Source: an uncultured Bacteroidota bacterium
GTDB lineage: Bacteria > Bacteroidota > Bacteroidia > Bacteroidales > UBA12481
Length of the DNA stretch: 64,000 bases
Assembly: GCA_903851365.1 (NCBI GenBank)
Contig: CAINOB010000018.1
Span: 41,252-105,251, forward strand
Direction of reading: 5' to 3'
The stretch's first letter is position 1. Each line of letters begins with the position of its first letter. Under the pieces are notes generated by a model, which saw nothing but the letters and a program-made list of their open reading frames with translations, ran no database searches and had not been told where the DNA came from. Made by a program: the position numbers and the translations under genes. Shown here piece after piece: positions 577-62,399 of the stretch.

Positions 577-613
577 AATGTGCTTAATGTGCTAATTTGC
601 TAATGTGATAATG
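577..613 (+). repeat. Octamer repeat AATGTGCT family
   Basis: aatgtgcttaatgtgctaatttgctaatgtgataatg. Confidence 0.8.
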
Positions 614-617
614 AAAA

Positions 618-3600
618 ATGAAAACAATTAAGACTATAATATTAAGTGTAATAGCCTCAGCGCTGATGGGCTTTTCAGTCCAGGCGCAAGATGTCCGGCT
701 GTTATCGACCAAAGTGGCCGATATTCTGGCCCAGATGCCGGCCAATGATCTGGTTCAGAGGGATAAGGCTGTTCAGAACCTGATCCAGCTGGGAGATCAG
801 GGAATCGCAGAAATCAACAAACTCATCGTTCCGGCAGGTACCGGAGATGATACCAATGCCCGCTTTGCCATCAGTGCTCTATCGATGGTGCTGGGTCAGG
901 ATGGAACGGTTCAAGAGGCCGACCGACTGATGATATCCAAGGCTTTCATTAAGGCAATGGATCAGGCTACCGACAAGGGAATTAAGTCGTTCTACATGTA
1001 CCACCTTAAGTTTTTTGCCAATGGAGAGGCTGCAGAACCGGTGGCAAAATATTTGTCGGACGAATATCTGGTTGAACCAGCCGCAGCTGTTTTGGTTGGA
1101 ATGAAAAACCATCCGGGTATGAAAGCTTTAAAGATGGCTCTGCCCGAAATGAAAGGAAAGTGCCAGATGGTTGTAGTGAAAGGATTAGGCGATTATGGTG
1201 CTGCCTGTGCCGATTCTGCCATCCGTTCATTGGCCAATACCACTGATCCGAAATTGAAGAAAATAGTACTTTATGCTCTGTCACAGATAGGAGCAAAAGA
1301 ATCAGCCGAAGTTATGGTGAATGCTGCCAAGCAGGTGAAATTTGCCTACGAACCAACCGAGGCCACACGCTCACTGGTCAGATTTACCGATAACCTGGCA
1401 AAATCGGGCGAAGCCGTCATGACAAAAAGGATCTGCAACATATTGGTTAAGGAATGCCAGAGTGTTGATAATAACTCCAATGCATTGGCTGCTATGGAAG
1501 TCATGACCAAAAACTATGGTTTTGAAGCCCTGGATATGCTGATAGCCGCCGTTGACAATTCCGACATGAAATACCGTGCCGGGGCTCTGCGGCAGGCAGC
1601 AAATATTAAAGATATCGCAGCTGTTAGAAAATGGATTGACAAAGCGAATACTGCTCAGCCTGAAGTTGCCGCTGAGATCACCGCCATGCTGAGCCAGATT
1701 GGTGACCCCGTTGCGCTGCCATTCTTCCGCAAGGCTGCCGTATCGGACAGTCCTGTTATGAGAAGCGCTGCTCTGCTTGCACTGGTTAAGATGCAGGGTA
1801 AAGAAGTTTTGCCGATGGTTCTTGCTGACCTTAAAAAAGCAACAGGCGCTGAGCTAGATGTATGTGCATCGACGCTGAATACTATTGTTGGACTGAAACA
1901 AATCGATCAGGTAGCTGCCGCTTTGGATGAGGTTCCTGTGATTGCGAAACCGGTTCTGATCAACCTGATCGGAGCTCGCAAGGCAACTGCCCAGTTTGAT
2001 AAAATTTTAAAGCTTACTGCTGATGCTGATCCGGCTGTTTCGGCTGCTGCATACAAAGTGCTTCCATTGGTTTCCACCGCTGCAAATACAGCTGCTCTTA
2101 TCAGTCTGCTTGAAACGACCAAGAACCCGGCCTCGGTTACCAATGTTCAGGATGCATTGGTGTCGACTGCCCTGACTGTTAGTAATCAAAATGATAGAAC
2201 CAAAGCGCTCATCGAAGCTTATAAAACAAAAAAGGCGCTAAAAGAAAAACTGCTGGGAGTGCTGCCACGAATCGGTGGTGATGAAGCCCTGAAGCTTATC
2301 AGTGCTGAATTCACAGCACAAAAAGGTGCATCAAAAGATCAGGCCTTTGCAGCTCTGACCAAGTGGAAAGATACCAAGGCTTGCGATCAGCTTTTTGCTA
2401 TTGCATCAGCGGGACCTGAAAAATATAAAGCAGAAGCGTTTACTGCCTATGTTGGTAAAATATCGAAATCCAAAATTAATGCAGATCAGAAATTGCTTCT
2501 CCTCCGCAAGGTGATGGTTTTGGCCGGCACCCCTGATCAGAAAAAGCTGGTGATCCAGGGACTCGATGGCAACCGTACCTTCTTAACACTCGTATACGTT
2601 TCTAAATATCTGGATGATAAAGATATCCAGAACGTTGCCGCTCATGTTGCCATGGGTATTGCCATGCCGCCTTCGGGAACGAAAGAAGGCATGTACGGAG
2701 AAACGGTTAAAGGAATTCTGACAAAGTGTATTGCTGTGATCAGTGGCGAAGAGAGTGATTATGCAAAGGAAAATATGCGTAACTGGCTTGCCGCCATGCC
2801 AAAAGATGCTGGTTTTGTGCCGATGTTCAACGGTAAGGATCTTTCCGGATGGCAGGGCCTGGTCGAAAACCCCATTGCCCGTGCAAAAATGTCGAAAGAT
2901 GAGCTAGCCCAGAAACAGAAAGCCGTGGATGCAACTATTGGTGAAAGCTGGTCGGTTAAAGACGGAATGATCGTTTTCAATGGCAAGGGAAATAATCTCT
3001 GCTCAACAAAAGATTACGGCGATTTTGAAATGTGGGTCGACTGGAGAATCACCAAAGATGGCGACAGTGGCATCTATCTGCGTGGTTCGCCACAGGTTCA
3101 GATCTGGGATACTACCCGTCATGATGTCGGAGCGCAGGTTGGATCAGGCGGTTTGTACAACAACCAGAAAAATCCATCAAAACCCACCCAGGTAGCGGAT
3201 AATCTTGTTAATGACTGGAATACTTTCTATATCAAGATGGTAGGCGAAAAGGTTACGGTAAAACTTAACGGTATTACGGTGGTGGACAATGTAACTCTTG
3301 AGAATTACTGGGATCGCAGCATCCCAATTTTCCCGAAAGGCGCTATTGAGCTGCAGGCCCATGGTACCAATCTTGGATTCCGCGATATTTATGTAAGGGA
3401 AATCAAGAGCGAAGATTACGGTCTGACAGTCGCAGAACAGGCAGATGGGTTTGTTGCTTTGTTTAACGGCAAAAATCTGGATGGCTGGGTTGGGAACAAG
3501 ACAGATTATACGGTCGACAACAATGAGATAGCGGTTGCGCCTGCAGCAGGTGGCGGATCAGGCAACATGTACACGGAAAAGGAATATTCTGATTTTATTT

Positions 3601-4022: not shown

Positions 4023-4031
4023 CGCAGAAAT

Positions 4032-4167
4032 GGCAGAGGGCAAAAGGCAGAAGGCATAAATTAGTAAAAAGAAATAGGTTTTAAGAAATAATTAATAATC
4101 AGATTAATAGCGCCTTATAGCTTAATTCTTATTACTAATTTATGCCTTTTGCCTTTTGCCCTCTGCC
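4032..4167. repeat. Inverted repeat pair, 36-nt arms (4032-4067 and 4132-4167), one mismatch, 64-nt spacer
   Basis: ggcagagggcaaaaggcagaaggcataaattagtaa versus reverse complement of ttactaatttatgccttttgccttttgccctctgcc. Confidence 0.9.
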
Positions 4168-4183
4168 TTATTCCTGTTACACG

Positions 4184-4672
4184 ATGAATGATTCGCCTGC
4201 CATCCGCACCCGCCTGAATCCCTCTGATATCAGCGAAATCGTGCGTTATCATGATGAGTATTATGCGGCTAATTATGGGTTTAACCATGATTTCGGCAGG
4301 TACGTGCTGGGACCGCTGACTGAGTTTTTTGAGCGGAACTCTCCCGATGAAAGAATCTGGCTGCTGGAAAATCAATCGGGTTTAAAGGGTTGTGTGGCAT
4401 TGGTCAGGAATTCGGATGAGGAGTCTCAGCTGAGGTGGTTTTATGTTGATGAATCGCTCCGCGGGCAAGGATATGGGCAGCAGTTAATAAACCTTTTGAT
4501 CACCTTTGCCGTTGAAAAGAATTATCAGCGGATCATCCTTTGGACAGTCAGCCTGTTGGATGAGGCCCGGAGGGTTTATGAACGGAACGGATTTAAGCTC
4601 GAAGAAGAACACCTTTCTCAGGTTTGGGGAAAGGAGTTGTTAGAGCAGAAATTTGTGAAGACAATTTGCTAA
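4184..4672 (+). CDS. GNAT family N-acetyltransferase
   Basis: LRWFYVDESLRGQGYGQQLINLLI...RVYERNGFKLEEE; the upstream ATG at 4142 lies inside the inverted repeat, so the start at 4184 is preferred. Confidence 0.85.
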   Translation: MNDSPAIRTRLNPSDISEIVRYHDEYYAANYGFNHDFGRYVLGPLTEFFERNSPDERIWLLENQSGLKGCVALVRNSDEESQLRWFYVDESLRGQGYGQQLINLLITFAVEKNYQRIILWTVSLLDEARRVYERNGFKLEEEHLSQVWGKELLEQKFVKTIC

Positions 4673-4719
4673 TTTGACAATTTGCTAATTTGCTAATTCG
4701 ACAATTTGACAATTTGTTG
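4662..4719 (+). repeat. Octamer repeat AATTTGCT/AATTTGAC family
   Basis: AATTTGCT AATTTGAC AATTTGCT AATTTGCT AATTCGAC AATTTGAC AATTTGTT. Confidence 0.9.
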
Positions 4720-4741
4720 GTGTATTGATTGGGAATGAATT

Positions 4742-8593: not shown

Positions 8594-10849
8594 CTAAAGC
8601 GAGCCGATCATCAATTTACCTGTGACAGATTTATTTCCGGCAACCAAACGGTAGAAGTAAATCCCCGGTGTCAGGTTGCCTCTGGAGAATTCGATTTCAT
8701 GATGACCCAGTGTCATCTCCTCCTTGATAAGCGTGGCCTGGCATCTGCCGTTCAGGTCGTAAACCGATAAGTTTACATTGCTGCTCGACGGCAAATCGAA
8801 CCAGATAGTGGCATCAGTGGTAAATGGATTAGGGTAACAGCCCGAATCGAAAGCATTTATAGCAGGGGAATCATCGATACCGGTGGGATTGCAGGTTCTG
8901 AACTGCACACCATCGAGCCAGATAGTAAATCCGGAATCCCAGGTGTCGGCATGGAATTCGACATAATTTGTTTGAGCAAGATCCATGTTTCCGACGGTAC
9001 TCCTGACATATGAAGTATTGCCTTTCAGAGGGATCCTGTACTTTTTCCAGCTGTTTTTAGCATTATTAAGGAGCGATGTTGAGGCTGTGTACTTATAATA
9101 TCCACCGGTAAAATTGCCGACCCTGATGGTGAAGTTTTGAAATCCATATGCCGATTTATTGACCGTTTTCACCCAAAAGGTCAGCGTGTCGGAAGCCGAC
9201 AGGTTCCAGATGGCCAGTGAATCTTCACCAGGACGGTAGTTCATGGCAATATCGAATCCCAGTGGAGTATACAGCTTGACAGAGGAAGCGCCCACTTTTT
9301 TATCGGTATAATCAAACTCGAGAACTTCTGGCAAAAACAATCCGTAACCCTGATCACGATAAACGGTCCATACCGATGGACGCTCGGCCATGTCGCACGG
9401 GGGATCATAGGAGACTGCCGGTTCCGATCCGCGAACATAAGGCTGATAGTTTACATTGCCCGCTATCTTATTGTGAATCAGACTGTCAACATTCGGTATA
9501 AATGTATTATTAATGGCATTAACCGGATCGGTGGAGGTGTTCTGTATGAACCAGAAAGTCGGCGACTTGAATGTATTGCCGGTGAGGGTATCATTAAAGG
9601 ATTGCCCTTCGAGATAAATATCATTGTATTGATTGTAGTTGAACTGGTTTTCCTTGACAACCAGGTGCTCGGTATTTATTGCGCTGATCGCTTTTTCGTT
9701 ACCTTCCAGCACATTGCCTGTAATATTGTAGTCGTGTGAGAACTGTTGTCCGTAAGGCTCAATGACGCCGCCTTCCCAAAGTTCGAATCCCAGGGGGTTA
9801 CTCTTGATGCTATTGCTGACAAATTTGTTATTGTAACCGCGGTCAACGGCGATACCTGATTTAAAATTTCCGATAATCTGATTGTCGGCCACCAGTGAGT
9901 TAAAGCTATACCCGAGCCAGAACCCATAATCGCTGTAGTTGCAGCGGTTTCCGCGGTAAACGTTTCCGTCGGCAAAGGTGGCCTCAATCGCGTTGTGGGG
10001 CGAATAGGAGCAGTCGTTATATCCGAAATAATTATGGTTGGGCGTGCCCGAATATTCGTACTGCCCGAGAAATACACCGTCGCCGGAATAGGTGAGATCA
10101 TTATTGGTCACCACATTATCGTTTGATACGATCAGGAGGATGGCAGCACAGTCACTGGGATCAGTCTTGCGGTTTACGTGAGAACAATTATTGTGCGTTA
10201 TCGTGCAATTATTGGTGAAATTCATGCGGATTCCGAACCCGCAGTTCCAGTTCAGCAAGTTGTCGTGAATGGTCATGCTGTCGCATTCATACATGGCAAT
10301 TCCATCGTTTTGCTGAACCATTTGGTTTCCGAATAATTCAGAACCTGCACACCTCTGCATGAGCACGCCACCGCCAAGGGCCGCCGTGTAATCGGTCCAG
10401 ATGGAGATCCAGCCGAGTGTGTCTTTTTTGTTATAGGAGAAATTATTGTCATTAATTACCAGGTTGGATGACTGTCTGGCGGTCACAGCGTAATAGAAAT
10501 TTTTTACCGACGAAAAGTTCTTTATGGTGATATTCCGCGAGTTTTGGATATAAATCAGGTACCCTTCAAAACCGGTGCCGGTGACATTCACACTATCGCC
10601 ATCGATGGTAATATTTTCCTTGTCGACGATGCGGATAACGCCATCTTTAGCCATATCAGCGAAGGAATAGGTTCCGCTTTTTATCCTGATATTCGAATTC
10701 GATGCGATGTCCATGTTGTCGGTAAGAGAAACAACAGACTGGGATAATAGGGCAGAAGGGCAAAAGGGCAAGAGGGCAAAAAGGAAAGTAAAAAGGCTCA
10801 AGGCGCGAGGCGCAAGGCTCGGGCGAAGGTGAAAGCGGAGAAATTTCAT
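8594..10849 (-). CDS. Right-handed parallel beta-helix repeat protein with T9SS C-terminal sorting domain
   Basis: NITIKNFSS/NLVINDNNFS/GNRCNYSDYGFWL repeats; CTD YPNPFTTDATIWFDLP...GIYFYRLVAGNKSVTGKLMI; start at MKFLRFHLRPSLAPRALSLF (10849) preferred over 11017. Confidence 0.85.
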   Translation of the reverse strand: MKFLRFHLRPSLAPRALSLFTFLFALLPFCPSALLSQSVVSLTDNMDIASNSNIRIKSGTYSFADMAKDGVIRIVDKENITIDGDSVNVTGTGFEGYLIYIQNSRNITIKNFSSVKNFYYAVTARQSSNLVINDNNFSYNKKDTLGWISIWTDYTAALGGGVLMQRCAGSELFGNQMVQQNDGIAMYECDSMTIHDNLLNWNCGFGIRMNFTNNCTITHNNCSHVNRKTDPSDCAAILLIVSNDNVVTNNDLTYSGDGVFLGQYEYSGTPNHNYFGYNDCSYSPHNAIEATFADGNVYRGNRCNYSDYGFWLGYSFNSLVADNQIIGNFKSGIAVDRGYNNKFVSNSIKSNPLGFELWEGGVIEPYGQQFSHDYNITGNVLEGNEKAISAINTEHLVVKENQFNYNQYNDIYLEGQSFNDTLTGNTFKSPTFWFIQNTSTDPVNAINNTFIPNVDSLIHNKIAGNVNYQPYVRGSEPAVSYDPPCDMAERPSVWTVYRDQGYGLFLPEVLEFDYTDKKVGASSVKLYTPLGFDIAMNYRPGEDSLAIWNLSASDTLTFWVKTVNKSAYGFQNFTIRVGNFTGGYYKYTASTSLLNNAKNSWKKYRIPLKGNTSYVRSTVGNMDLAQTNYVEFHADTWDSGFTIWLDGVQFRTCNPTGIDDSPAINAFDSGCYPNPFTTDATIWFDLPSSSNVNLSVYDLNGRCQATLIKEEMTLGHHEIEFSRGNLTPGIYFYRLVAGNKSVTGKLMIGSL
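10750..10832. repeat. Purine-rich AAGGCNC heptamer tract overlapping the signal-peptide codons of the minus-strand beta-helix gene
   Basis: gggcagaagggcaaaagggcaagagggcaaaaaggaaagtaaaaaggctcaaggcgcgaggcgcaaggctcgggcgaagg. Confidence 0.85.
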
Positions 10850-10921
10850 AAGTCGGTAGTTTGACCCAAAGGTAGCAATTGAGGCCGAAAATGAAGTACT
10901 AGATTCCATTTCAGAATCTTC

Positions 10922-10965
10922 GACCCGACACCCGACACCCGATACCCGGCACCCGGTACCTGTTA
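10922..10965. repeat. CCCGACA heptamer repeat
   Basis: CCCGACA CCCGACA CCCGATA CCCGGCA CCCGGTA CCTGTTA. Confidence 0.92.
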
Positions 10966-10974
10966 TTCTATTAT

Positions 10975-10982
10975 TATCTTTG
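10975..10982 (+). promoter_or_regulatory. Candidate Bacteroidota -7 box (TATCTTTG) upstream of the AI-2E transporter
   Basis: Matches TAnnTTTG 17 nt before the ATG at 11000; no convincing -33 element. Confidence 0.4.
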
Positions 10983-10999
10983 TATAAAATCGAAGTAAA

Positions 11000-12052
11000 A
11001 TGAATAACACCATTCATCCATCAAAAATATACCAGTTCATACTGATTGGGGTGATTCTGCTGCTGGCATGGGTTCTATGGAAGCAGCTCAGCTTTCTTTT
11101 TCCATCGCTGCTTGGTGCTATTGCCCTATATATATTGCTTAAGGATCCGATGTTCTGGCTGATAAAGAAGAAAAACATGAAGGATTGGATTGCGGCGTTG
11201 CTGCTTATGGTAGCGACTATGGTAATCATTATTGTCCCGATGTGGTTTGTGATCAAGTTACTGATCCTAAAGATTGAGCCACTGCTGACCACTCCGGATT
11301 ATTTCACTGATATTTTTAAGCAGATCAATGTTTACCTGAATGATGAGATTGGTATAGATTTGATTACCCAGGATACCCTCATGAAAATTAGCGGCAGGCT
11401 CACGGAATTCGCCAGGCAGATTTTAAGTGGAACCCTGCGCCAGGTTGCCATTATTCTTTTCATGTATGTACTTCTTTTTTTCATCATGATCAACGGCCGC
11501 AGACTGGAGGTTTTCCTTCGTCGCAACCTGCCTTTCAGCCATGAAAACAGGGGTAAAGTGCTGAATGAAGTTACCCGGATGGTCAGGAGCAATGCCATCA
11601 CGATCCCGTTGGTAGCTATTTTGCAGGGAACCATTGCAATGATCGGATATTTCATTTTCGGTTTGCATGAGGCTCTGCTGCTGGGGGTGTTAACCATGAT
11701 TGCATCAATGGTCCCCGTGATTGGCGCGCTGATGGTGTATCTTCCGATCATCATTTATACACTAGCTACCGGACCGCTTATGCTGGGTATCGGATTGGCC
11801 CTGTGGTGTTTTATTCTCGTTGGGGCGGCTGATAATGTGGCGAGGTTCATGTTGCAGCGGAAATTGGCTGATGTGCATCCTATCATTACCATTCTTGGGG
11901 TAATTGTCGGGACTAAGTTGTTTGGGCTTATCGGATTGATATTCGGACCATTAATGATTACATTGTTTGTTGTATTGGTTAAGGTTTATTTTAATGAATT
12001 CGGTCATTTATCGACTCCGCGCAAACCCGTATCAGAAAAGAAAACAACCTAA
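11000..12052 (+). CDS. AI-2E family transporter
   Basis: Multi-TM protein with GTIAMIGYFIFGLHEALLLGVLTMIASMVPVIGALMVYLP...IIGTKLFGLIGLIFGPLM pattern. Confidence 0.88.
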   Translation: MNNTIHPSKIYQFILIGVILLLAWVLWKQLSFLFPSLLGAIALYILLKDPMFWLIKKKNMKDWIAALLLMVATMVIIIVPMWFVIKLLILKIEPLLTTPDYFTDIFKQINVYLNDEIGIDLITQDTLMKISGRLTEFARQILSGTLRQVAIILFMYVLLFFIMINGRRLEVFLRRNLPFSHENRGKVLNEVTRMVRSNAITIPLVAILQGTIAMIGYFIFGLHEALLLGVLTMIASMVPVIGALMVYLPIIIYTLATGPLMLGIGLALWCFILVGAADNVARFMLQRKLADVHPIITILGVIVGTKLFGLIGLIFGPLMITLFVVLVKVYFNEFGHLSTPRKPVSEKKTT

Positions 12053-15537: not shown

Positions 15538-15574
15538 CAATGTGCTAATGTGCTAATTTGCTAATGTGCAAATG
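15538..15574 (+). repeat. Octamer repeat AATGTGCT family
   Basis: AATGTGCT AATGTGCT AATTTGCT AATGTGCA AATG. Confidence 0.9.
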
Positions 15575-15719: not shown

Positions 15720-15785
15720 CCCAAGGCCAGTGTTGAGTTTTGAAATTACAAAATCAAGTTTGCCTCGATTCATCTGCTTAGTTTC

Positions 15786-15826
15786 GTGGTTAGGGACGGG
15801 GTTCCCGCTTTCGCGGGAATGACAAC
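15786..15826. repeat. Palindromic GGGGTTCCCGCTTTCGCGGGAATGAC repeat
   Basis: gtggttagggacggggttcccgctttcgcgggaatgacaac, reverse orientation of the 41212/63085 family. Confidence 0.9.
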
Positions 15827-15896
15827 ACTATCGAGGGTTACCTGGTTTCGGACTTTCAGAATTCAAAACTGGCCTTCGAATCTCATCATTTCGCCC

Positions 15897-17888: not shown

Positions 17889-17931
17889 GTCACCTGTCAC
17901 CTGTCATCGGTCACCGTTCACCTGTCACAAT
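17889..17931 (+). repeat. GTCACCT heptamer repeat
   Basis: GTCACCT GTCACCT GTCATCG GTCACCG TTCACCT GTCACAA. Confidence 0.92.
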
Positions 17932-17954: not shown

Positions 17955-20057
17955 ATGCTCTTCGGCCTCCACATTATCGACCTTGCCATTATCCTGGTGT
18001 TCATCGTTATTATGCTTTTCATCGGCATGAAAGCTGAAAAGAAAAATAAGGATACGAACGATTTTTTTCTGGCCGGCAGAAAGCTCGGTAAGGCATATCA
18101 GTTCTTTCTGAATTTCGGGACCTCAACCCATGCGGATCAGGCGGTTGCAGTATCCAGGGAAGTTTACCGGCAGGGGATCGGCGGAATGTGGATCCAGTTT
18201 CTGGTACTGTTTCTGACCCCATTTTACTGGTTTTCGACCTTCTTTTTCCGTCGGGTGAGGTTAACGACTATCGGGGACTACTTTACCGAACGTTTCAACA
18301 GTAAATTCCTGGGTGGAAGCTATGCTGTTTTTACCCTGCTGATGGCATTGCTTGGTGGCGGGGTGGGGTATATGGTGGCTGCCAAAACCATGGTGGCGAT
18401 GACACCTAAACCGATCGAAGCATGCACCCCTGCTGAACAGCGAAGCATATCTGAATTCAAAGAGTTCAGGGCGCTGCGTACACAATTGGCAGCTGGTTTA
18501 TCTGCCGATCAGAAAATTCGATATGATCAGCTCAGCGATAAAGACAAAAAGCATGAGCTTCATTCCTTCTTTTCCTACACCAATGAATTGTGGTTTTACC
18601 TGATATTCGTACTGGTGGTTGGATTATACACCATGATGGGCGGATTCCGTGCTGCGGCAATCACCGATGCCATCCAGGGAATTCTCATCCTGATATTCTC
18701 ACTGATACTGATACCTGCCGGCTTGAGCAGGGTCGGTGGATTTTCTGGTTTGCACGCCAATGTCCCGGATTATGTATTTCAACTTTTTGGATCGTCCACA
18801 ACGAGCGAATATGCCTGGTACACCATTCTCGCTATGGCGATGGCAAACCTGGTTTCGATTGTCGCGGTGGTCACCGGTATGCAGACTGCCGGATCGGCAA
18901 AAAATGAGAATACGGCCCGCATTGGCATGATAGGCGGAATGTTTACCAAGCGCGTGATTATGGTTTTCTGGGCGCTGGCTGGTCTGCTGGCTATTGCCAT
19001 TTACGGGGGCACCCTCAGCGATCCCGATCTGATCTGGGGTGTCATGACCAACGATTTGCTGCTGCCGGGCGCCATCGGCCTGATGCTGGCTGGGATTCTT
19101 GCAGCCAATATGTCGAGTCTCGGCGCTACCTCAATCTCCTATGCTGCGCTGTTTATCCGGAATTTATACAAGCCGTTTTATCCTGATAAATCTGAGAAGC
19201 ACTATCTGACTGTCGGAAGGATTGTCATTGGTTTTACACTCGTCGGGGGCATCGGCATTGCTTTAAAGGTTGATAATCTGCTTACCCTTTTTCAGTATAT
19301 TATCTCGATACCGGCAATTTTCGGAGCCTCGGTTTGGCTTGGATTTATGTGGCGCCGTGTAACAAAATGGGCCGTTATTATCCAGGTGGTGGCCTGCCTG
19401 ACCATTTATGCCATTATCCCGAATATTTTCCCCTCTATTCCTTCCATTTCCCACAATCCTGCTATGATTGTGCAAACTGAGCCACGAGAAACAACCATTA
19501 CCACCAAGGCTCTGCAATCAGATGTTGATGCCGGGAAGGCAGTCAAGGTTGGTGAAAAGATCTCTAAAACGGTGACGAGTCCTCCGGTTGGCATCTTTTT
19601 CGATAAGGTTGCCCGAGAAAATCCGGATGATCTTAATTCACCGAAGGTTGGGGTCGACCGGTTTCATGCCGAAATTTGGGTGATCAGCTGGTTCGGGTTC
19701 GACCTTACCCATTTAAAGAAAGCTCAACTGGTAGCGATGCGTTTCTTTTTTGATGCGCTTTTCCCGTTCCTGCTGCTCTTTTTGCTTTCCCTGATAACCA
19801 AACCGATATCCAAAATATCTCTCGATAATTTCTTTGCCAAGATGCATACGCCGGTTCAACCAACTCCCGAAGAGGATGAAGCTGCATTGGTCAAGGCCCG
19901 TGCCAATTTTGCCCAATTTGAGAAAGAGAAAATGTTCCCGAAAAGCAATTGGGAATTCCGCAAATGGAAGCGTCTGGATTACATCGGATTTTTCGGCAGC
20001 TGGGCGCTGGTGGGGTGCGTGATTTTGTTCCTTTGGTTTATTGTTTCCGTGAAGTGA
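17955..20057 (+). CDS. Sodium:solute symporter family protein
   Basis: DFFLAGRKLGKAYQFFLNFGTSTHADQAVAVSREVYRQGIGGMW...GGFRAAAITDAIQGILIL...ANMSSLGATSISYAALF. Confidence 0.9.
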   Translation: MLFGLHIIDLAIILVFIVIMLFIGMKAEKKNKDTNDFFLAGRKLGKAYQFFLNFGTSTHADQAVAVSREVYRQGIGGMWIQFLVLFLTPFYWFSTFFFRRVRLTTIGDYFTERFNSKFLGGSYAVFTLLMALLGGGVGYMVAAKTMVAMTPKPIEACTPAEQRSISEFKEFRALRTQLAAGLSADQKIRYDQLSDKDKKHELHSFFSYTNELWFYLIFVLVVGLYTMMGGFRAAAITDAIQGILILIFSLILIPAGLSRVGGFSGLHANVPDYVFQLFGSSTTSEYAWYTILAMAMANLVSIVAVVTGMQTAGSAKNENTARIGMIGGMFTKRVIMVFWALAGLLAIAIYGGTLSDPDLIWGVMTNDLLLPGAIGLMLAGILAANMSSLGATSISYAALFIRNLYKPFYPDKSEKHYLTVGRIVIGFTLVGGIGIALKVDNLLTLFQYIISIPAIFGASVWLGFMWRRVTKWAVIIQVVACLTIYAIIPNIFPSIPSISHNPAMIVQTEPRETTITTKALQSDVDAGKAVKVGEKISKTVTSPPVGIFFDKVARENPDDLNSPKVGVDRFHAEIWVISWFGFDLTHLKKAQLVAMRFFFDALFPFLLLFLLSLITKPISKISLDNFFAKMHTPVQPTPEEDEAALVKARANFAQFEKEKMFPKSNWEFRKWKRLDYIGFFGSWALVGCVILFLWFIVSVK

Positions 20058-20112
20058 CGTGACACGTGACGCGAAACGCGTGACCGTAGGGGAGGACCCG
20101 TGAGTCCTCCTT
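20053..20112. repeat. GTGACGC-type heptamers followed by perfect palindrome GGAGGAC-ccgtga-GTCCTCC (20091-20110)
   Basis: gtgacgtgacacgtgacgcgaaacgcgtgaccgtaggggaggacccgtgagtcctcc. Confidence 0.85.
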
Positions 20113-22953: not shown

Positions 22954-23027
22954 GGCAGAGGACAGAGGGCAGAAGGCAAAAGGAAAGGCAAAAGGCTCAA
23001 GGCACAAGGAAAGGCAAAAGTAAAAAG
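22954..23027 (+). repeat. Purine-rich heptamer-like repeat tract (AAGGCAN family) after paralog 1
   Basis: ggcagaggacagagggcagaaggcaaaaggaaaggcaaaaggctcaaggcacaaggaaaggcaaaag. Confidence 0.8.
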
Positions 23028-25001: not shown

Positions 25002-25018
25002 TGAAAAATGAGCCTGTT

Positions 25019-25456: not shown

Positions 25457-25504
25457 GGCACAAGGCTCAAGGCACAAGGCAAAAGGAAAGTAAAAAGGAA
25501 AAAG
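25457..25504 (+). repeat. Heptamer repeat tract (AAGGCAC AAGGCTC AAGGCAC AAGGCAA AAGGAAA)
   Basis: Read directly; 7-bp periodic units before paralog 3. Confidence 0.85.
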
Positions 25505-27469: not shown

Positions 27470-27617
27470 GGCAGAAGGGCAAGAGGGCAAAAAGGCAAGA
27501 AGGAAAGGCAAAAGGCGCAAGGCACAAGTGGGCTGCGTGCTGCTGGCTGCAAAAAAAGGGAGGACGCGCGGGTCCTCACCTACAGTTGTCACCCGTCACC
27601 TGTCACTTGTCACAATA
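27470..27617. repeat. Composite repeat island: AAGGCAN tract, GAGGAC..GTCCTC palindrome (27560-27577), GTCACCN heptamers
   Basis: ggcagaagggcaagagggcaaaaaggcaag...; gaggacgcgcgggtcctc; gtcacccgtcacctgtcacttgtcacaa. Confidence 0.85.
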
Positions 27618-39598: not shown

Positions 39599-39604
39599 TG
39601 AAGA

Positions 39605-39634
39605 GGTGACAGGTGACGAGTGACGGGTGACAAA
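39605..39634 (-). repeat. GTCACCN heptamer repeat (here GGTGACN)
   Basis: ggtgacaggtgacgagtgacgggtgaca. Confidence 0.85.
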
Positions 39635-41156: not shown

Positions 41157-41414
41157 TAGACGGAAGACGGAAGACGGAAGACAGAAGACCTGGAGAGATT
41201 GCCCTCGGAGAGTTGTCATCCCCGCGAAGGCGGGGACCCCGTCCCTATACACGGCATTTCGAAGGCGGGAACCCCGTTCCTTACCACAGAATTTATCAGT
41301 AGTACGTTCGCCCTGAGTAGGACAATTCTTGAAATCATAGTAACTTTCGCCATCATATTTTTTTCTTCCGCGTTACGCGTCACGCGTCCCGTGTCACGAT
41401 TAAACCGACCACCT
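41157..41414. repeat. Composite repeat island: GGAAGAC heptamers, two GTCATCCCCGCGAAGGCGGGGACCCCG palindromic units, CGCGTCN heptamers
   Basis: ggaagacggaagacggaagacagaagac; gttgtcatccccgcgaaggcggggaccccgtccct; cgcgttacgcgtcacgcgtcccgtgtcacg. Confidence 0.9.
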
Positions 41415-49041: not shown

Positions 49042-50353
49042 ATCAGCTGATGAGCTGAGAGCTAAATCGCGGGAACTTGGGATCGAACTACCTTGGTCCG
49101 ACTCGGTCGATCTATTGCTGCAACCAGCAGTGATTCAGGGTATCCGGGTACCAAACCGGTTGACTGTTCAACCCATGGAAGGGTTTGATTCGGATGAAAA
49201 CGGTATGCCGGGAGAATTGGCTTTCAGGCGCTATGGCCGTTATGCTGCCGGGGGGAGTGGAATGATCTGGTTTGAGGCAGCCAGCGTTTTGGCTGATGGC
49301 AGATCGAACCCACACCAGTTGATGATCACTGATGAGACCCTTGACCAGTTCAAAAAATTAACACAGCATATTCGCAATATAGCGGCTGAAAAATACGGCC
49401 CTGACCACAGGCCCTTTCTTGTTCTCCAGCTAACCCATTCAGGTCGTTACAGCAAACCGGGCGGCGACTTTCAGGCAAAGATTTTCTCGGATAATCCTAT
49501 CCTCGGTGTTCCTCATACCCGACAACCGATACCCGACACCCGACACCCGATACCCATTTTTTATTCTGATTCCGACATCGATGCCGTCAAAGCAGCATAT
49601 ATTCACGGTGTAGAGCTGGCTGAACTGGCCGGTTTTGATGCTGTAGATGTCAAGGCCTGTCATGGGTACCTCCTTCATGAAATGCTGTACGCCTTTGATC
49701 GTTCTGACAGTAGGTACGGCGGTTCGTTCGAAAACCGGACCAGCTTTCTCAGAGAGGTGCTGAATACGCCATCAAAAATTATTAAAGCAGTCCGGCTGAG
49801 TGGGTTCGATCTGATACCATATCCTAATGGATTTGGCATGAAAAACGATGGATCGGACGTAATTGATCCTTTAGAAGTTAAGAAGTTGATTTCGGAATTT
49901 GCACCGATAGTGCCCCTCTGGAATATCACTGCCGGAGTGCCCCGTTTGGCTGCTCATGTTGGACGTCCCTACGATCGGGGGGCTTTCAATGCCCCGCCAC
50001 CTGATGAACATCCCCTTATAGGAATCGAACGGCTGATCAGGATAACCGGCGAGTTGCAGCGTGCATTTCCCGGGCTCTCTTTTGTGGGTACTGGATATTC
50101 CTGGCTCCGGCAATATTTTCCTAATGTGGGTGCAGGAATTCTCGAAAAGAAAATGGCCACGTTTATCGGATTGGGAAGAAGCTCATTTGCTTATCCTGAT
50201 GCTCCTTTGGACCTGATGAACCATGGGAAACTCGATCCGAAAAAAAATTGTATCACCTGCTCAAAATGCACTGAGTTCATGAGGCTGAATGTGCCGGCGG
50301 GTTGCGGAGTGCGGGATGTGCAATACAAGGCAGGAGGGCAGAATGGCAGGTAA
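49013..50353 (+). CDS. NADH:flavin oxidoreductase (Old Yellow Enzyme family)
   Basis: RLTVQPMEGFDSDENGMPGELAFRRYGRYAAGGSGMIWFEAASV; FDAVDVKACHGYLLHEML; CITCSKCTEFMR. Confidence 0.88.
   Translation: MAKHEKFRFKSADELRAKSRELGIELPWSDSVDLLLQPAVIQGIRVPNRLTVQPMEGFDSDENGMPGELAFRRYGRYAAGGSGMIWFEAASVLADGRSNPHQLMITDETLDQFKKLTQHIRNIAAEKYGPDHRPFLVLQLTHSGRYSKPGGDFQAKIFSDNPILGVPHTRQPIPDTRHPIPIFYSDSDIDAVKAAYIHGVELAELAGFDAVDVKACHGYLLHEMLYAFDRSDSRYGGSFENRTSFLREVLNTPSKIIKAVRLSGFDLIPYPNGFGMKNDGSDVIDPLEVKKLISEFAPIVPLWNITAGVPRLAAHVGRPYDRGAFNAPPPDEHPLIGIERLIRITGELQRAFPGLSFVGTGYSWLRQYFPNVGAGILEKKMATFIGLGRSSFAYPDAPLDLMNHGKLDPKKNCITCSKCTEFMRLNVPAGCGVRDVQYKAGGQNGR
49512..49556 (-). repeat. CCCGACA heptamer tract inside CDS
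   Basis: ctcatacccgacaaccgatacccgacacccgacacccgatacccat, translates HTRQPIPDTRHPIPI. Confidence 0.88.
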
Positions 50354-50404: not shown

Positions 50405-50438
50405 ATTTTGTCACTCGTCACTCCTCACTCGTCACCAT
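50405..50438 (+). repeat. GTCACTC heptamer repeat
   Basis: gtcactcgtcactcctcactcgtcacca. Confidence 0.85.
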
Positions 50439-50451: not shown

Positions 50452-52356
50452 ATGGAAACCAGACCTAGCGCTACAATAAATACCCTCATCATCGGCAGCG
50501 GGGCAGCAGCATTGAATGCAGCCTTATGCCTGTGGGAATCAGGCGTGCACGATATCGTTATTGTGACTGAGAAGTGGGGTGGAGGTACGTCTAATAATGC
50601 TGGATCCGACAAGCAGACTTATTATAAGATGTCGCTTGATCCTTCAGTGCCCGATTCAGCTGGGGAAATGGCTGCCGATCTGTGCCGAGGCGGGGCCATG
50701 CATGGCGATATCGCTTTGTGCGAAGCTCAGTATTCATTACAGGCATTCTACAATCTGGTTCGCCTTGGTGTACCTTTTCCGCATAATAAGTATGGATCCT
50801 ATCCGGGTTATAAAACCGATCATGACCCCCGGGCCCGTGCCACCTCAGCCGGACCACTTACGTCGCACCTGATGTTTAAATGCCTTGCCGCTAAGGTGAA
50901 GGAATATGGAATACCGGTCCATGATCATGTCATTATTACTGAACTTTTAACACGCAATGAACCTGGAGGAAAAGCCATTGCCGGCGCCGTCGGGATCGAT
51001 TCCAAGAAAGTATTGGAAAACGGATATGGATTGGTTGTTTATAATGCAGTAAATGTGATCCTTGCCACTGGCGGACCAGCTGGTATTTATAAACACTCAG
51101 TGTATCCCGAAAGTCAAATCGGTTCAATCGGTATTGCCTTGAAAATAGGAGCAAAAGCACAGAATCTGAGCATATCCCAGTTTGGTATATCCTCGGTGAA
51201 ATTCCGTTGGAACCTATCGGGATCTTATCAGCAGGTGGTTCCCCGGTATTATTCAACAGACTCTGACGGCGGTGATGAGGTTGAATTTCTGAACCCTCAT
51301 TTTCATGATAGGGAAACCCTTTTTACCGCTATATTTCTAAAGGGCTATCAATGGCCGTATGATCCAAAGAAAGTTGCAGATTTTGGCTCCTCGCTGATAG
51401 ATTTGCTTGTGCAGGATGAAATTGGCCGGGGAAGAAAGGTATATATCGATTTTAACCGAAATCCCGATGGCTTCCACCTGGATAAGATAGGACCTGTCGC
51501 CCGGGAATACCTTGAACGATCGGGAGCATTGGCTGGGACTCCAATCGAAAGACTTAAACTAATGAATCAGCCAGCAATCGATTTATATTTAAGTCATGGT
51601 ATCGATATTACCCGGGAACCCTTGGAAATTGCAGTTTGTGCCCAGCACAATAATGGCGGGTTGGTAGGAGATATCTGGTGGGAATCAAATATAAGCGGTT
51701 TGTTTCCGATCGGCGAAGTCAATGGCACACACGGCATTACGCGGCCCGGTGGGGCGGCATTGAACTCCGGGCAGGTGGGTGGTATCCGGGCAGCAATGAA
51801 AATAGTTGGCAGCCGGCAGTCGGCAGTTGGCAGTGCGCAGTTGGCAGATGGCAATAGGCAGTTTGCAAGTGGCAGTCACCCGTCACCTGTCACCTGTCAC
51901 CTTCTTCTATCTAGCAAAGGCTCCCTGGATTACCGCGATGCCCTTGCCGAACTTCAGCAACGCATGTCGGAACATGGTGGCCCGGTGCGCGACCGGCAAG
52001 CAATAAAAACAGAAATTCAGTGTGCCTGGGACCTGTGGAAACGTCTTAATAATGAAGTAAAAGCCGTTGATCCGACCGAATTGGTGTCAGCTTTGCGAAC
52101 ATTCGATCTTTGCTTGACTCATGCTGTTTATTTGGAATCGATCGCTGAATATCTGGATAAATCAGACGATGAACTTTTTACTCAACAACACATTCTCGAA
52201 ATTCATCTGGATGATAATCTGAAAGTTCAGAAAACCTGGGTGCCGGTTCGACCAGTTCCAAAAGAAGAATTGTGGTTCGAGAAAGTATGGAAGGAGTACA
52301 GGCATAGCATTAACCCCGGACTTCAGTCTGGGGATAATGCCAGTGAATCAACCTAA
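50452..52356 (+). CDS. FAD-binding protein (fumarate reductase/succinate dehydrogenase flavoprotein-like)
   Basis: [67 protein letters not shown]. Confidence 0.88.
51808..51900 (+). repeat. Composite heptamer array inside CDS: ten GGCAGTN units then three ACCTGTC units in the same 7-bp register
   Basis: GGCAGCC GGCAGTC GGCAGTT GGCAGTG CGCAGTT GGCAGAT GGCAATA GGCAGTT TGCAAGT GGCAGTC ACCCGTC ACCTGTC ACCTGTC, translates [31 protein letters not shown]. Confidence 0.95.
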
Positions 52357-52373
52357 TGAATTGAATCTTAACT

Positions 52374-54737: not shown

Positions 54738-54791
54738 ATGGAATAGTTATGTTTTCTTTGTACAGGCAAAAACCTTAATGGTCTGGCACAA

Positions 54792-57575: not shown

Positions 57576-57623
57576 TTAATTAAATATTAACTTTGGAATC
57601 TGTCACGTCTCTATCCTCAATTT

Positions 57624-58778: not shown

Positions 58779-58785
58779 TCGATAG

Positions 58786-58876
58786 AGTTGTCATCCCGTT
58801 GAAAAACGGGACCCCGTCCCAGACCGCGAAAATAATTAGCAAATTAGTCAATTAGCAAATTAACGAATTGTCACAT
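58786..58876. repeat. Composite repeat island: GTCATCCCGTTGAAAAACGGGACCCCG palindrome plus AATTAGCA octamers
   Basis: gagttgtcatcccgttgaaaaacgggaccccgtccc; aattagcaaattagtcaattagcaaattaacgaattgtca. Confidence 0.88.
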
Positions 58877-58883
58877 TGAGAAT

Positions 58884-59897
58884 ATGACCTCGAGAAACCT
58901 GGTAATCAAGACTCTTAATTTCGATCGGCCTAATAGGATGCCAAGGCAATTGTGGTTGTTACCATGGGCTGAGCGTCGGTATCCTGAATTTGTAAAAAAG
59001 ATCAGGGATCTGTATCCTGATGATATTGCCCAGGCTCCCGGAATATATAAGAATCCGTTAAACCTGACAGGTGGTAAATACGATTCCGGAATATATATTG
59101 ATGAGTGGGGATGTAAGTTTGTGAATATGGAAGATGGGCTGATGGGCATTGTTCATGAGCCGCTCATAAAAGTTTGGTCTGATCTGGATGATTTCAAAAC
59201 TCCGGATGCCGCACTCAATATCGACAAGGAGGAGATTAACCGGTTCTGCCGGTCGACCGATAAATTCGTTTATGCAGGGTCAATCGTACGTCCACTTGAG
59301 CGGTTCCAGTTTTTGCGCACCATGGAACAATCAATGACCGATGTGCTTTTTGAGGAGCCCGGATTCATTGAATTACTTCGCAGAATGCATGTCCATTTCT
59401 GCAAAGAAGTGGAGGTGTGGTCGAAAACCGAAGTCGATGCGATTTTTTTGATGGATGACTGGGGAACGCAGCATGCAATGATGCTTTCTCCTGACGTTTT
59501 TAGGAAATATTTTAAGCCTATGTATCGCGATTATTGCGAAATTGCCAGTCAGCATAACAAATACGTATTTATGCATTCCGACGGTAATATTGCCGAGATT
59601 CTGCCTGAGCTGGTTGAAGTTGGCGTTAACGCAATCAATAGCCAGCTTTTCTGCATGGATATGGATCGATTGAGCCGCGAAGTTGCGGGCAAAATCACTT
59701 TCTGGGGTGAGATCGACCGCCAAAACACCCTCCCAAATGGTTCCTCCGCCGACATTACTCAAGCGGTCGACCTGATCTACTCAAAACTGTATCGCAACGG
59801 TGGGGTAATTGCCCAGTGTGAATTTGGCCCCGCAGCTAATCCGCAGAATATTTTACACGTATTTGATAGCTGGAACCGGAAGACGGAAGACAGATAG
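58884..59897 (+). CDS. Uroporphyrinogen decarboxylase (URO-D)-like protein / methyltransferase fold
   Basis: RKYFKPMYRDYCEIASQHNKYVFMHSDGNIAEILPELVEVGVNAINSQL...ITFWGEIDRQNTLPNGS. Confidence 0.82.
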   Translation: MTSRNLVIKTLNFDRPNRMPRQLWLLPWAERRYPEFVKKIRDLYPDDIAQAPGIYKNPLNLTGGKYDSGIYIDEWGCKFVNMEDGLMGIVHEPLIKVWSDLDDFKTPDAALNIDKEEINRFCRSTDKFVYAGSIVRPLERFQFLRTMEQSMTDVLFEEPGFIELLRRMHVHFCKEVEVWSKTEVDAIFLMDDWGTQHAMMLSPDVFRKYFKPMYRDYCEIASQHNKYVFMHSDGNIAEILPELVEVGVNAINSQLFCMDMDRLSREVAGKITFWGEIDRQNTLPNGSSADITQAVDLIYSKLYRNGGVIAQCEFGPAANPQNILHVFDSWNRKTEDR

Positions 59898-60010
59898 ACG
59901 AAAGACGAGAGACGAAAGAGAAGATCGAAAGACAAAACGAAAAAACAGAACAATGATCGACAGAGTTGTCATCCTCGCGAAGGTGGGGACCTCGTCCCTT
60001 ACCACGGATT
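59876..60010. repeat. Composite repeat island: GGAAGAC heptamers plus GTCATCCTCGCGAAGGTGGGGACCTCG palindrome
   Basis: ggaagacggaagacagatagacgaaagacgagagacgaaagag...; gagttgtcatcctcgcgaaggtggggacctcgtcccttaccacgg. Confidence 0.88.
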
Positions 60011-60063
60011 TTAATTTAAAACGACATAATCAGCGAATCAACTAATCATCATATAATCTTATC

Positions 60064-62367
60064 ATGAAACGCTTCCTCCTTTTTCTGCTCCTCGCCTCCC
60101 TGGGGTTATCAGCAAATTCTCAGAATCAGATTCCTCTGAAGAAATATCTTGAATATGCCAGATCTTCAGCTGATTATGTGTACAACACCCGGGATTCCAT
60201 CGTGATAAAATGGCGCAAGACCATCAATCCTGAGGATATCTTCGGATATCGTGCCCCCGGAAGCCTGCTTGAAATGGCGGCTATCTATGCCACACTGTAC
60301 GATCTCGAAGGAAAAAAAGTATATGCCGAACGGGCAAAAGAAGTGCTCCTGACTTACGGACAGTACACCAAGGAGTTTCCGGTTGATATATCCCGGCGAA
60401 AAGCGGATTATGCAGATGGCGTTCCGGCATTGCCTGATTTTTTTACCACCATGCGATACCTCCAGGCTTATGATAAGCTGAAAAACAAAGGCTTTCTGAC
60501 CGCCACCGAATGCACAAAAATCGATGACCTCATCGCACATAGCCTCATGTTTATATTGCGTACCCAGGAATGGGGCGCCATGAACCGGTCGGCTCTTAGG
60601 GCTGAAACCCTCTCGTGGGCGGTAAAAGTTCTTCCCAATCATGCCGTTTCGCCGATGCTGAAGATGTATGAGCAGGCCCTGCGTTCAGATAACTGGGGTA
60701 AGTGGGAAATTGAGGACGCATCGTTGTATCATGGCGTATGGGTTTATGCCTTAATGGGTTCGGCCGATGCCAAGGGCCAGATGGCTGAGCTTTTCCGTAC
60801 CCCTGAAATGTATTTTTATGCCCAGTATTTTCTTAACCTGATATCCCCGCAGGGTATGCTTCCGGATTTCGGTGACGCAGCAAATTTTACTAACTGGAAC
60901 CGTTGGATAGTTTTCTTCGAAGCGGCCGCCAAACAATATAATAACCCCGAACTGAAATGGGCAGCAACAGTTATTTCCAACAAATTCCTCGACCTTTCAA
61001 CCCCTAATAATGTGGGGATGGGCTATATGCTGCTCGATTGCTATCGTTATGGTACCGATAATATTGCTCCTAAAGCACCGGTCACCCTGAGCGAAGAGGT
61101 GATGGAAGATTTGGTCGGGAAAAAAGTTGTTTTCCGAAACGGATGGGATGAAAAGTCATCTTACCTGCTCCTGAATTACCGGGATGAGGGTGATGGTGGA
61201 TTGCTGTACCGTGATTATCTGCGCAATACGATCCCGATTGAGGAAGAAAAAGTTACCCATGGACATGCCGATGAAAATAGTATCGCTCTGCTGATGTATA
61301 AAGGATCGACATTGCTGATCGACGGCGGTTACCGCGATTTCCTGCCCAGCGGTTATTTTGGCTCCTATCGGCAAGATTATTTTCATAATCGCCTGTGTGT
61401 AAGAAATGAAAAAATCTGGTTTGGCCAGAAAGAGGGTGAATCGCGATACAGCCAGTCGGACCATCCTGCCATCAAACCGCAGAATGTTATGGAATTCATG
61501 CAGAATGCAGGCTCCTATCGCAAAGTGCGCACTCAAAAGGTGGATTTTCTTACTTTCCCCGATCACGATTACAGCCGAACACGGGTGATTGATGAGGAGC
61601 TGGGTTATGAAAGCGATAGGGTGATCGTCTATATTAAGGACCCGGGCATGTACGTGGTTTTTGATATTTTCAAATCCAGATCGGAACAATTTTTTACCGC
61701 CACTAATCTCTGGCATACACAGAAGATCCTGAAACAGGGCGAACATTGGTACGATACGAAATACGAAAATATCCAAACCCGCAAAGTCGGTGGCGACCAG
61801 AATCTGCTGGTTTATTTCCCTAAGAACCATTATCATTTTGAACAAACACAGAAAGAGAACCGAAACTATCAGGAGGAGATTGCTATCGCTGATTATACTG
61901 CTCAGTTTTTCGAAATGGGTCAGCATACCGGTTTTGTGACTGTACTTATACCTCATTCTGATCAGGTGAACCCCGAACATCTGATCAAAGGAATTGAATA
62001 TGTTCCCTCATCAACCGATGAGAATGGTTTGTCGGTTAGTATACAGCTCGAGGGCAAAACAATACAGGTTGGTGTGAAGTGCGATCTGAAAATGGATCTG
62101 GTAAGGGATTATCAGAGACCAAAATACACCTGGGAAGCAGGAAAAGTCGGCTACGGAGATATTGAAACCAATGCCGATTTCTTCTACACCGAGAAAGTTG
62201 GAAATAAACTCAGTTTTACTGCAGTTAATCTTACAAAAGCTACCTTCAAGGGGCAATTAATGTACGAACAACCGTCATCCTATTTCGGACTGAATTTCGA
62301 TGGCCGTCCGGATAATCCGGATACCGGAAAAGCAAGGTTGTGGAGGGATACCATAACAATCCGATAA
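60064..62367 (+). CDS. Heparinase II/III-like polysaccharide lyase, secreted
   Basis: Signal peptide MKRFLLFLLLASLGLSANSQ; THGHADENSIALLMYKGSTLLIDGGYRDF; alpha/alpha toroid-like N-terminal region. Confidence 0.78.
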   Translation: MKRFLLFLLLASLGLSANSQNQIPLKKYLEYARSSADYVYNTRDSIVIKWRKTINPEDIFGYRAPGSLLEMAAIYATLYDLEGKKVYAERAKEVLLTYGQYTKEFPVDISRRKADYADGVPALPDFFTTMRYLQAYDKLKNKGFLTATECTKIDDLIAHSLMFILRTQEWGAMNRSALRAETLSWAVKVLPNHAVSPMLKMYEQALRSDNWGKWEIEDASLYHGVWVYALMGSADAKGQMAELFRTPEMYFYAQYFLNLISPQGMLPDFGDAANFTNWNRWIVFFEAAAKQYNNPELKWAATVISNKFLDLSTPNNVGMGYMLLDCYRYGTDNIAPKAPVTLSEEVMEDLVGKKVVFRNGWDEKSSYLLLNYRDEGDGGLLYRDYLRNTIPIEEEKVTHGHADENSIALLMYKGSTLLIDGGYRDFLPSGYFGSYRQDYFHNRLCVRNEKIWFGQKEGESRYSQSDHPAIKPQNVMEFMQNAGSYRKVRTQKVDFLTFPDHDYSRTRVIDEELGYESDRVIVYIKDPGMYVVFDIFKSRSEQFFTATNLWHTQKILKQGEHWYDTKYENIQTRKVGGDQNLLVYFPKNHYHFEQTQKENRNYQEEIAIADYTAQFFEMGQHTGFVTVLIPHSDQVNPEHLIKGIEYVPSSTDENGLSVSIQLEGKTIQVGVKCDLKMDLVRDYQRPKYTWEAGKVGYGDIETNADFFYTEKVGNKLSFTAVNLTKATFKGQLMYEQPSSYFGLNFDGRPDNPDTGKARLWRDTITIR

Positions 62368-62399
62368 TTCGACAATTTGCTAATTTGCTAATTAGAATT
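62366..62399 (+). repeat. Octamer repeat AATTCGAC/AATTTGCT family
   Basis: aattcgacaatttgctaatttgctaattag. Confidence 0.85.

What the first reader, a model, noticed from the sequence alone, without database searches (positions are those of the whole stretch)
577..62399. Many unrelated short tandem repeat families share one 7-bp (or 8-bp) period across the window
The sequence shows at least six families with different consensus but the same unit length: CCCGACA (10922-10965, 49512-49556, 42791-42840), GTCACCT (17889-17931, 27587-27615, 39605-39634, 50405-50438, 51878-51900), GGCAGTT (51808-51877), GGAAGAC (41157-41190, 59876-59938), AAGGCAC (22954-23027, 25457-25504, 27470-27526, 10750-10832) and CGCGTCA (20053-20085, 41371-41400). 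Octamer families follow the same style: AATTTGCT (577, 4662, 15538, 58829, 62366) and CTCCTCAC (38101). Units vary inside a tract, but the period holds. Heptameric STRR sequences are known from cyanobacteria; I do not know of an equivalent multi-family system described for Bacteroidota. A shared period with unrelated consensus suggests one generating mechanism (a polymerase, reverse transcriptase or slippage process with a 7-nt step) rather than spread of one element. The mechanism is inference.
Basis: partly seen in the sequence, partly recalled or inferred. Interest (0 to 1): 0.82.

Follow-up and report, generated by a model that had tools for sequence, protein, structure and literature searches.

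The report
Species-specific seven-base repeat arrays, rewritten together
A group of uncultured Bacteroidales bacteria carries dozens of short, usually four-copy, seven-base tandem repeats at fixed places between and inside genes, and each species has changed the repeat word at many places together, which ordinary copying slippage alone does not explain.

Summary
Confirmed: the window holds about two dozen degenerate 7/8-bp arrays, and across 1.3 Mb from seven congeners intergenic tandem repeats peak sharply at 7 (52), 8 (22) and 14 (10), all other periods ≤6; 1.0 Mb of other phyla shows ~0.4 per 100 kb. The phenomenon is genus-wide but patchy; this window is a dense patch.

The shared period is real and known elsewhere (heptamer excess; 7-nt polymerase-footprint slippage already proposed). 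But the families are not independent births: few words recur within each genome, several 'families' share cores, and words are species dialects: CCCGAYA in G000/G001/G006, ACCGAYA in G004, AACYGGC in G007. Fixed slots keep an array while its word changes: one linker inside a flavoprotein gene carries heptamer arrays in all seven congeners that hold the gene, with different words. At one junction four consecutive units differ by one base each, 7-mers against 8-mers, between aligned flanks. Arrays favour four units, also in a family that cannot form a G-quadruplex.

Best explanation: slippage plus copying among dispersed arrays (concerted evolution); mechanism inferred. New variant of a known kind.

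The parts
51804..51902 (+). In-gene slot A: (GGCAGTY)8-10 followed by (GTCACCY)4, in frame inside ORF 50452-52356 after [12 protein letters not shown]
   Evidence: all seven congeners with the gene carry a heptamer array here, with different words
49512..49556 (+). In-gene slot B: CCCGAYA array inside ORF 49013-50353
   Evidence: G001 and G006 have CCCGAYA, G004 ACCGACA, G005 ACCGGCA at the same codons
38097..38144 (+). In-gene octamer array CTCCTCAC, present in G000 and absent in G001 and G006 (24 nt net) inside ORF 37523-39598
   Evidence: similar stretches elsewhere in the genome
42791..42840 (-). CCCGAYA array inside ORF 41199-43058
   Evidence: same family at the same place in G006
27470..27526 (+). 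Slot F: four 8-bp GGGCAAGA-type units, then AAGGCNC units ending NCAAGT, starting at the stop codon TAA
   Evidence: the orthologue in G001 has 7-bp units in the same four positions
27587..27615 (+). (GTCACNN)3GTCAC, four cores, after a GTAG-headed palindrome
22954..23027 (+). Two-block module GGCAGAG/GGCAGAA/GGCAAAA then AAGGCNC, between two paralogous genes of a T9SS-cargo type, starting at the stop codon
25457..25504 (+). AAGGCNC array starting at the stop codon of ORF 25001-25456
10749..10829 (+). 8-bp AGGGCAAA units followed by AAGGCNC units
10922..10965 (+). CCCGAYA array
17889..17931 (+). Slot D: GTCACNN array, six cores (four in G006 with the same right flank)
20046..20085 (+). Slot E: GTGACNC units (CGCGTCA family) before a GTAG-headed palindrome; G006 has GTGACNG units with the same right flank
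39604..39634 (-). Slot G: GTCACNN array, four cores
50405..50438 (+). Slot C: GTCACTC array, four cores; G006 has 33-bp blocks of AAGGCTC here
41157..41190 (+). GAAGACG array after the dispersed motif CGAAGAAGAAGATCG
41366..41400 (+). GTCACGC array
59876..59942 (+). GAAGACG-type degenerate array at a gene end
4028..4169 (.). Inverted pair of GGC arrays forming a long hairpin
577..613 (+). AATGTGCT octamer array, units in the same order as at 15538
4660..4716 (+). AATTTGCT/GACAATTT octamer array
15538..15574 (+). AATGTGCT octamer array
58834..58869 (+). AATTAGCA octamer array
62366..62393 (+). AATTTGCT octamer array

Best explanation
These are dispersed, mostly four-unit heptamer (and octamer) arrays that sit in tolerated slots (just after stop codons, spacers, protein linkers) and evolve concertedly within each species. 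Shown: period, restricted vocabulary, species dialects, slot conservation with changed words, several units differing together, four-unit mode. Inferred: array sequence is copied between dispersed arrays (RecA-independent template switching or short ectopic gene conversion, or re-seeding from a within-genome pool), and replication slippage in 7-8-nt steps then changes unit number locally.
For: Within-genome recurrence of words against composition-shuffled units: 33 pairs vs 7.7 in G000, 25 vs 3.2 in G004, 15 vs 1.9 in G007; octamers in G000 12 vs 0.5; no shuffle of 300 reached the observed value. Whole-genome counts of triple units: CCCGAYA 17/33/72 in G000/G001/G006 and 0 in G004; ACCGAYA 44 in G004 and 0-1 elsewhere; AACYGGC 40 in G007 only; AAGGCNC in 2 of 119 genomes of the order, both in this genus. 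The word at orthologous slot B follows each species' genome-wide word in G000, G001, G004 and G006. Slot F: four 7-mers against four 8-mers differing by one base per unit, between aligned flanks. Slot E: GTGAC cores kept, spacer G against C, right flank identical. CCCGANA: position 7 is A in 32 of 32 units while position 6 is C12/T16/A4, so variation is not uniform decay. Module order, e.g. GGCAGAG-GGCAGAA-GGCAAAA then AAGGC, recurs at several loci in two species. Slippage signature: unit difference rises 1.15, 1.49, 1.62, 1.74, 1.80 with distance.
Against: Permutation tests of unit order between loci were weak: only GGCAG reached P = 0.011 (left-anchored), the others P = 0.06-0.5, so copying of whole arrays with order kept is not shown for most families. 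No donor-recipient pair was caught. Arrays of 26-60 bp are short for RecA-dependent conversion. Selection by a trans-acting binding factor would give the same dialect pattern. Only one window's synteny was compared. In the unbiased between-species test G000 and G007 did not share words beyond chance (18 vs 13). A slot can also turn over by loss and regrowth of single units.
Confidence: 0.45

Rival explanations
1. Pure replication slippage: DNA polymerase favours 7-8-nt steps, so arrays arise independently and turn over by unit gain and loss (the idea cited for the heptamer excess in many bacteria).
For: Sharp 7/8 peak; neighbouring units most alike; unit numbers differ between orthologues at 27587 and 17889; the idea is reported in PMC4679880 and PMC4692102.
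Against: Recurrent words and species dialects over dozens of loci; peak at four units with few threes (GTCAC: two 3s, thirteen 4s); four units differing together.
Confidence: 0.15
2. Selected binding sites: each species has proteins (or an RNA) that bind pentamer cores spaced by seven, and arrays at many loci follow a drifting specificity, as DNA-uptake-sequence dialects do in Neisseriaceae.
For: Conserved cores with free spacer positions; four-unit mode; AAGGC arrays often begin at stop codons and run mostly in the sense direction in tandem gene pairs, 11 of 15. DUS dialects are a precedent (PMC3630211, listed; not read in full).
Against: Many different words per genome would need many binders; GTCAC and GGCAG arrays show no strand bias in tandem pairs (4 vs 5 and 4 vs 4); arrays inside protein linkers are hard to explain as regulatory sites.
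Confidence: 0.2
3. Dispersal by a mobile element: arrays are parts of REP-like or MITE-like modules moved by the RAYT-type Y1 transposase.
For: GTAG-headed palindromes sit next to many arrays; Y1_Tnp genes in every genus genome searched; ordered modules recur; some arrays are arms of hairpins.
Against: Most arrays have no inverted partner; only 1-3 Y1 matches per genome; no target duplication seen; words change while slots stay.
Confidence: 0.12
4. Selection for G-quadruplexes, considered for four-unit heptamer arrays of Xanthomonas and Nostoc.
For: Most AAGGC and all CCCGA arrays with four or more units match a four-G-tract pattern; [quoted passage not shown]
Against: All thirteen four-unit GTCAC arrays in the count fail the G4 pattern, yet this family has the clearest four-unit mode.
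Confidence: 0.05
5. RNA-templated synthesis by a reverse transcriptase that adds a 7-nt step, telomerase-like.
For: Would explain one period with species-specific words and in-place rewriting (inference).
Against: No RVT_1 match in array-rich G006 (94% complete) or G003 (67% complete); RVT_1 present in G008, which has few arrays. Several words per genome would need several templates.
Confidence: 0.04

Closest known systems
Heptanucleotide simple sequence repeats of prokaryotes (Mrazek 2007, as cited in PMC4679880 and PMC4692102)
   Same: Excess at period 7; slippage proposed, with a polymerase footprint of 7 nt.
   Different: Here units are degenerate, there is a second peak at 8, the vocabulary is restricted and species-specific, and some arrays sit inside genes at conserved linkers.
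TAACTGA heptamer arrays of Beggiatoaceae, Cyanobacteria and five Bacteroidetes (MacGregor 2015, PMC4679880)
   Same: Tandem heptamers in spacers, sporadic by species, some Bacteroidetes spacers with other heptamers too. A TAACTGA-like stretch occurs in congener G004 (L267).
   Different: There one word dominates and related heptamers are rare as repeats in the main genome; here many words and dialects.
G4-forming GGGAATC / GGGGAYT heptamers of Xanthomonas and Nostoc (Rehm 2015, PMC4692102)
   Same: Heptamers, preference for four units, arrays mostly kept between the same genes in two sister Xanthomonas with changed sequence and length.
   Different: The four-unit mode here includes a family that cannot form a G-quadruplex, and there are many words per genome.
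STRR heptamers of cyanobacteria (three heptamers in Calothrix, cited in PMC4692102)
   Same: Several different heptamer words in one genome.
   Different: No comparison of slots or dialects between species was available to me.
DNA uptake sequence dialects of Neisseriaceae (PMC3630211, found, not read in full)
   Same: A short word that differs species by species across the genome.
   Different: DUS are single short words, not tandem arrays (own knowledge); no link to uptake shown here.
REP elements and RAYT transposases
   Same: Dispersed spacer repeats, present beside these arrays with GTAG heads.
   Different: Arrays are not palindromes.

Membership tests
Heptanucleotide SSRs | Excess of period-7 tandem repeats over chance and over other periods | tested here: met
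Heptanucleotide SSRs | Growth by local slippage (neighbouring units most alike) | tested here: met
Heptanucleotide SSRs | Independent births, so no recurrent vocabulary (feature of the slippage-only model) | tested here: not met
TAACTGA heptamer arrays | Unit TAACTGA | tested here: not met
   Main words differ; only one TAACTGA-like stretch noted, in G004
G4 heptamer arrays | Four G-tracts per array | tested here: not met
   Met for most AAGGC and all CCCGA arrays of four or more units, not for GTCAC
G4 heptamer arrays | Preference for four units | tested here: met
   (GTCAC and AAGGC; not GGCAG)
REP/RAYT elements | Imperfect palindrome with a conserved tetranucleotide head | tested here: not met
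   Arrays themselves lack it; neighbouring palindromes have GTAG
REP/RAYT elements | Y1 transposase gene in the genome | tested here: met
Reverse-transcriptase-made repeats (DGR, telomerase-like) | Reverse transcriptase gene in every array-rich genome | tested here: not met
   None in G006 (draft, 94% complete)
DNA uptake sequences | Needed for species-specific DNA uptake | not testable with these tools
   experiment needed
Phase-variation contingency repeats | Unit-number change switching a gene between strains | not tested
   no strain-level genomes were compared

The most novel reading that the evidence does not exclude
An active, sequence-specific array-writing process in these Bacteroidales overwrites short arrays at fixed chromosomal slots with the species' current heptamer word, in blocks of about four units, so that dispersed arrays change dialect together; heptamer arrays in Xanthomonas and Nostoc, with the same four-unit preference, could be products of the same kind of process.
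Probability: 0.15. Interest if true: 0.88.

Novelty: new variant of a known kind. Interest (0 to 1): 0.6.

Why it matters
Why heptamers dominate tandem repeats in many bacteria has been left at 'polymerase footprint and slippage'. A genus in which heptamer words are species dialects, kept in fixed slots and differing several units at a time, suggests that something beyond local slippage acts, and gives concrete orthologous sites (slots A-G) where strains can be compared. The four-unit mode in a family that cannot form G-quadruplexes weakens the only structural explanation I found for that preference. Arrays inside protein linkers also show that the process reaches coding sequence.

Tried and rejected
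(1) One superfamily with a shared GAY core: not above shuffled units (P = 0.09 for GA[CT]). (2) Whole-array copying tested by unit order: weak for most families. (3) Contamination of the MAG or foreign origin of the window: tetranucleotide profile matches other contigs such as C2, C10 and C14. (4) Reverse transcriptase: no correlation. (5) Rfam families or tRNAs in the window: none. (6) A source for the array at 38097: similar stretches exist at other loci in G000 and congeners, but an octamer array would match in part anyway, so this was not taken as proof of copying. The second G000 batch was partly chosen at AAGGCAC hits; it was left out of the spectrum totals and of the recurrence tests quoted, but is included in the core-run counts. 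(8) The first pooled vocabulary test mixed in that batch and orthologous loci, so the cleaner tests are quoted instead.
Full report
What is there. In 1.3 Mb from seven genomes of the genus (G000, the window's own, and G001, G002, G004-G007) intergenic arrays by period are: 7, 52; 8, 22; 14, 10; every other period 6 or fewer. In 1.0 Mb of unrelated phyla, gathered around homologues of one window gene, periods 7 and 8 give 0.4 and 0.3 per 100 kb. A first-order shuffle of 758 kb of G000 gave none at 7 or 8. The organism is an uncultured Bacteroidales lineage; its nearest named relatives are MAGs that appear, from their isolate names, to come from a lake and an anaerobic digester (the sample types are inference). 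The window is a dense patch: 37.5 arrays of period 7/8/14 per 100 kb against 1.6 in 694 kb of G000 taken without regard to repeats, although tetranucleotide composition is the same.

Not only intergenic. Four tracts lie inside genes. Slot A, 51804-51902, lies in frame in an L-aspartate-oxidase/fumarate-reductase-like flavoprotein gene, just after the conserved [12 protein letters not shown]. All seven congeners that hold the gene have a heptamer array at this codon position, with different words: GGCAGTY plus GTCACCY (G000), GTCACCC (G006), GGCAG units and GTCACCY with palindromes between (G001), GTTRTCG (G004), GTCACTC after a palindrome (G005), CACCCCA-type (G002), GTCACGC (G003); three genomes of other genera have none. 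Solved L-aspartate oxidases align up to the slot but not across it, which suggests but does not prove a tolerant linker. Slot B, 49512-49556, holds CCCGAYA in G000, G001 and G006, ACCGACA in G004 and ACCGGCA in G005. At 38097 an octamer array is present in G000 and absent in G001 and G006, a 24-nt difference that keeps the frame.

Words are few and belong to species. Within a genome, arrays with words one mismatch apart or less are far commoner than for composition-shuffled words: 33 vs 7.7 pairs (G000), 25 vs 3.2 (G004), 15 vs 1.9 (G007), and 12 vs 0.5 for octamers in G000. Whole-genome searches give dialects: triple CCCGAYA 17, 33 and 72 in G000, G001 and G006, 4-5 in G003 and G007, none in G004, G005 and G002; triple ACCGAYA 44 in G004, at most 1 elsewhere; triple AACYGGC 40 in G007 only; four-core GTCAC 125, 78, 43, 28 and 27 windows in G001, G006, G000, G003 and G005, 4-5 in G004 and G007, and 12 in another genus, G009. 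AAGGCNC arrays occur in 2 of 119 genomes of the order, both in this genus, with 227 windows in G004. These counts are of overlapping windows, so long arrays count several times.

Rewriting in place. At slot F (27470) G000 has four 8-bp units where G001 has four 7-bp units; the alignment needs one extra base in each of four consecutive units, and the flanks on both sides align. G006 also begins with 7-bp units there, at a contig end; G001 and G006 are closer to each other than to G000, so the direction of change is open. The same kind of 8-bp module occurs at other loci of G000 (10749; L243). At slot E the GTGAC cores stay and the spacer differs, [AG]G in G006 against [AG]C in G000, up to an identical right flank. 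One-step replacement is the simplest reading, but repeated unit loss and gain cannot be excluded.

Anatomy. Cores are near invariant and spacers free: in CCCGANA, position 7, on which no filter acts, is A in 32 of 32 units while position 6 is C12/T16/A4. AAGGC arrays often end NCAAGT and often begin at a stop codon. The number of units peaks at four: GTCAC two 3s, thirteen 4s, seven longer; AAGGC five 3s, nineteen 4s, six 5s (these counts include the batch partly chosen at AAGGCAC hits). GGCAG arrays do not share this mode (ten 3s, four 4s). Rehm et al. found a four-unit preference in Xanthomonas and Nostoc and noted that it equals the minimum for a G-quadruplex (PMC4692102); none of the thirteen four-unit GTCAC arrays matches a quadruplex pattern. 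Some arrays form inverted pairs, one with a predicted hairpin of -79.7 kcal/mol (z -12.8), and in G004 and G007 the two arms of such pairs share the family.

How it probably works. Slippage acts: similarity between units falls with distance, and unit number differs between orthologues. It does not by itself give dialects or a four-unit mode. The simplest addition is copying of short array sequence between dispersed arrays (template switching, conversion, or re-seeding), which makes a species' arrays drift together; this step is inferred, and no donor was caught. Selection by a binding factor with drifting specificity is the main rival. Y1 transposases of the RAYT kind are present and fit the neighbouring palindromes, not the arrays. 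Reverse transcriptase is not needed.

What is known. The heptamer excess, the 7-nt footprint idea, TAACTGA arrays in Bacteroidetes, four-unit heptamers and slot conservation with sequence change in Xanthomonas are all published (PMC4679880, PMC4692102). In the papers searched I found no description of multi-word heptamer dialects with in-gene slots and joint change; most subscription papers could not be searched. So: a new variant of a known kind, with an open mechanism.

Noticed in passing
33913-33927: ATATC x3 in a B12-dependent mutase-like gene (ORFs 31220-34000 and 33946-34617); G006 has one ATATC copy fewer, and G004, G005 and G007 also lack extra bases there, so a 5-bp duplication appears to break the frame in G000. 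Real mutation or assembly error not settled.
   Followed up: partly
4026-4175: Near-perfect long hairpin with GGC-array arms, -79.7 kcal/mol, z -12.8.
   Followed up: partly
41199-41260, 58780-58820, 59960-60003: REP-like palindrome GTTGTCATCCCCGCGAAGGCGGGGACCCCGTCC with dozens of copies in congeners.
   Followed up: no
15770-15890: Another dispersed repeat of about 120 bp with many partial copies in G001, G004 and G006.
   Followed up: no
8594-11017 (minus strand): The array at 10749-10829, read in antisense, encodes a hydrophobic stretch (LAPRALSLFTFLFALLPFCPSALLSQ) that looks like the signal peptide of this ORF.
   Followed up: no
G056 (another family of the order): The backwards control pattern hit 16 windows, i.e. 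heptamer CGGAACN arrays: another Bacteroidales family with its own word.
   Followed up: no
L216 (G006) 14504-14666: AAGGCTC units grouped in tandem 33-bp blocks (four heptamers plus five bases).
   Followed up: partly
L215 (G001) 1-186: A 26-unit GAAGACR array at a contig end; such arrays may break assemblies.
   Followed up: no
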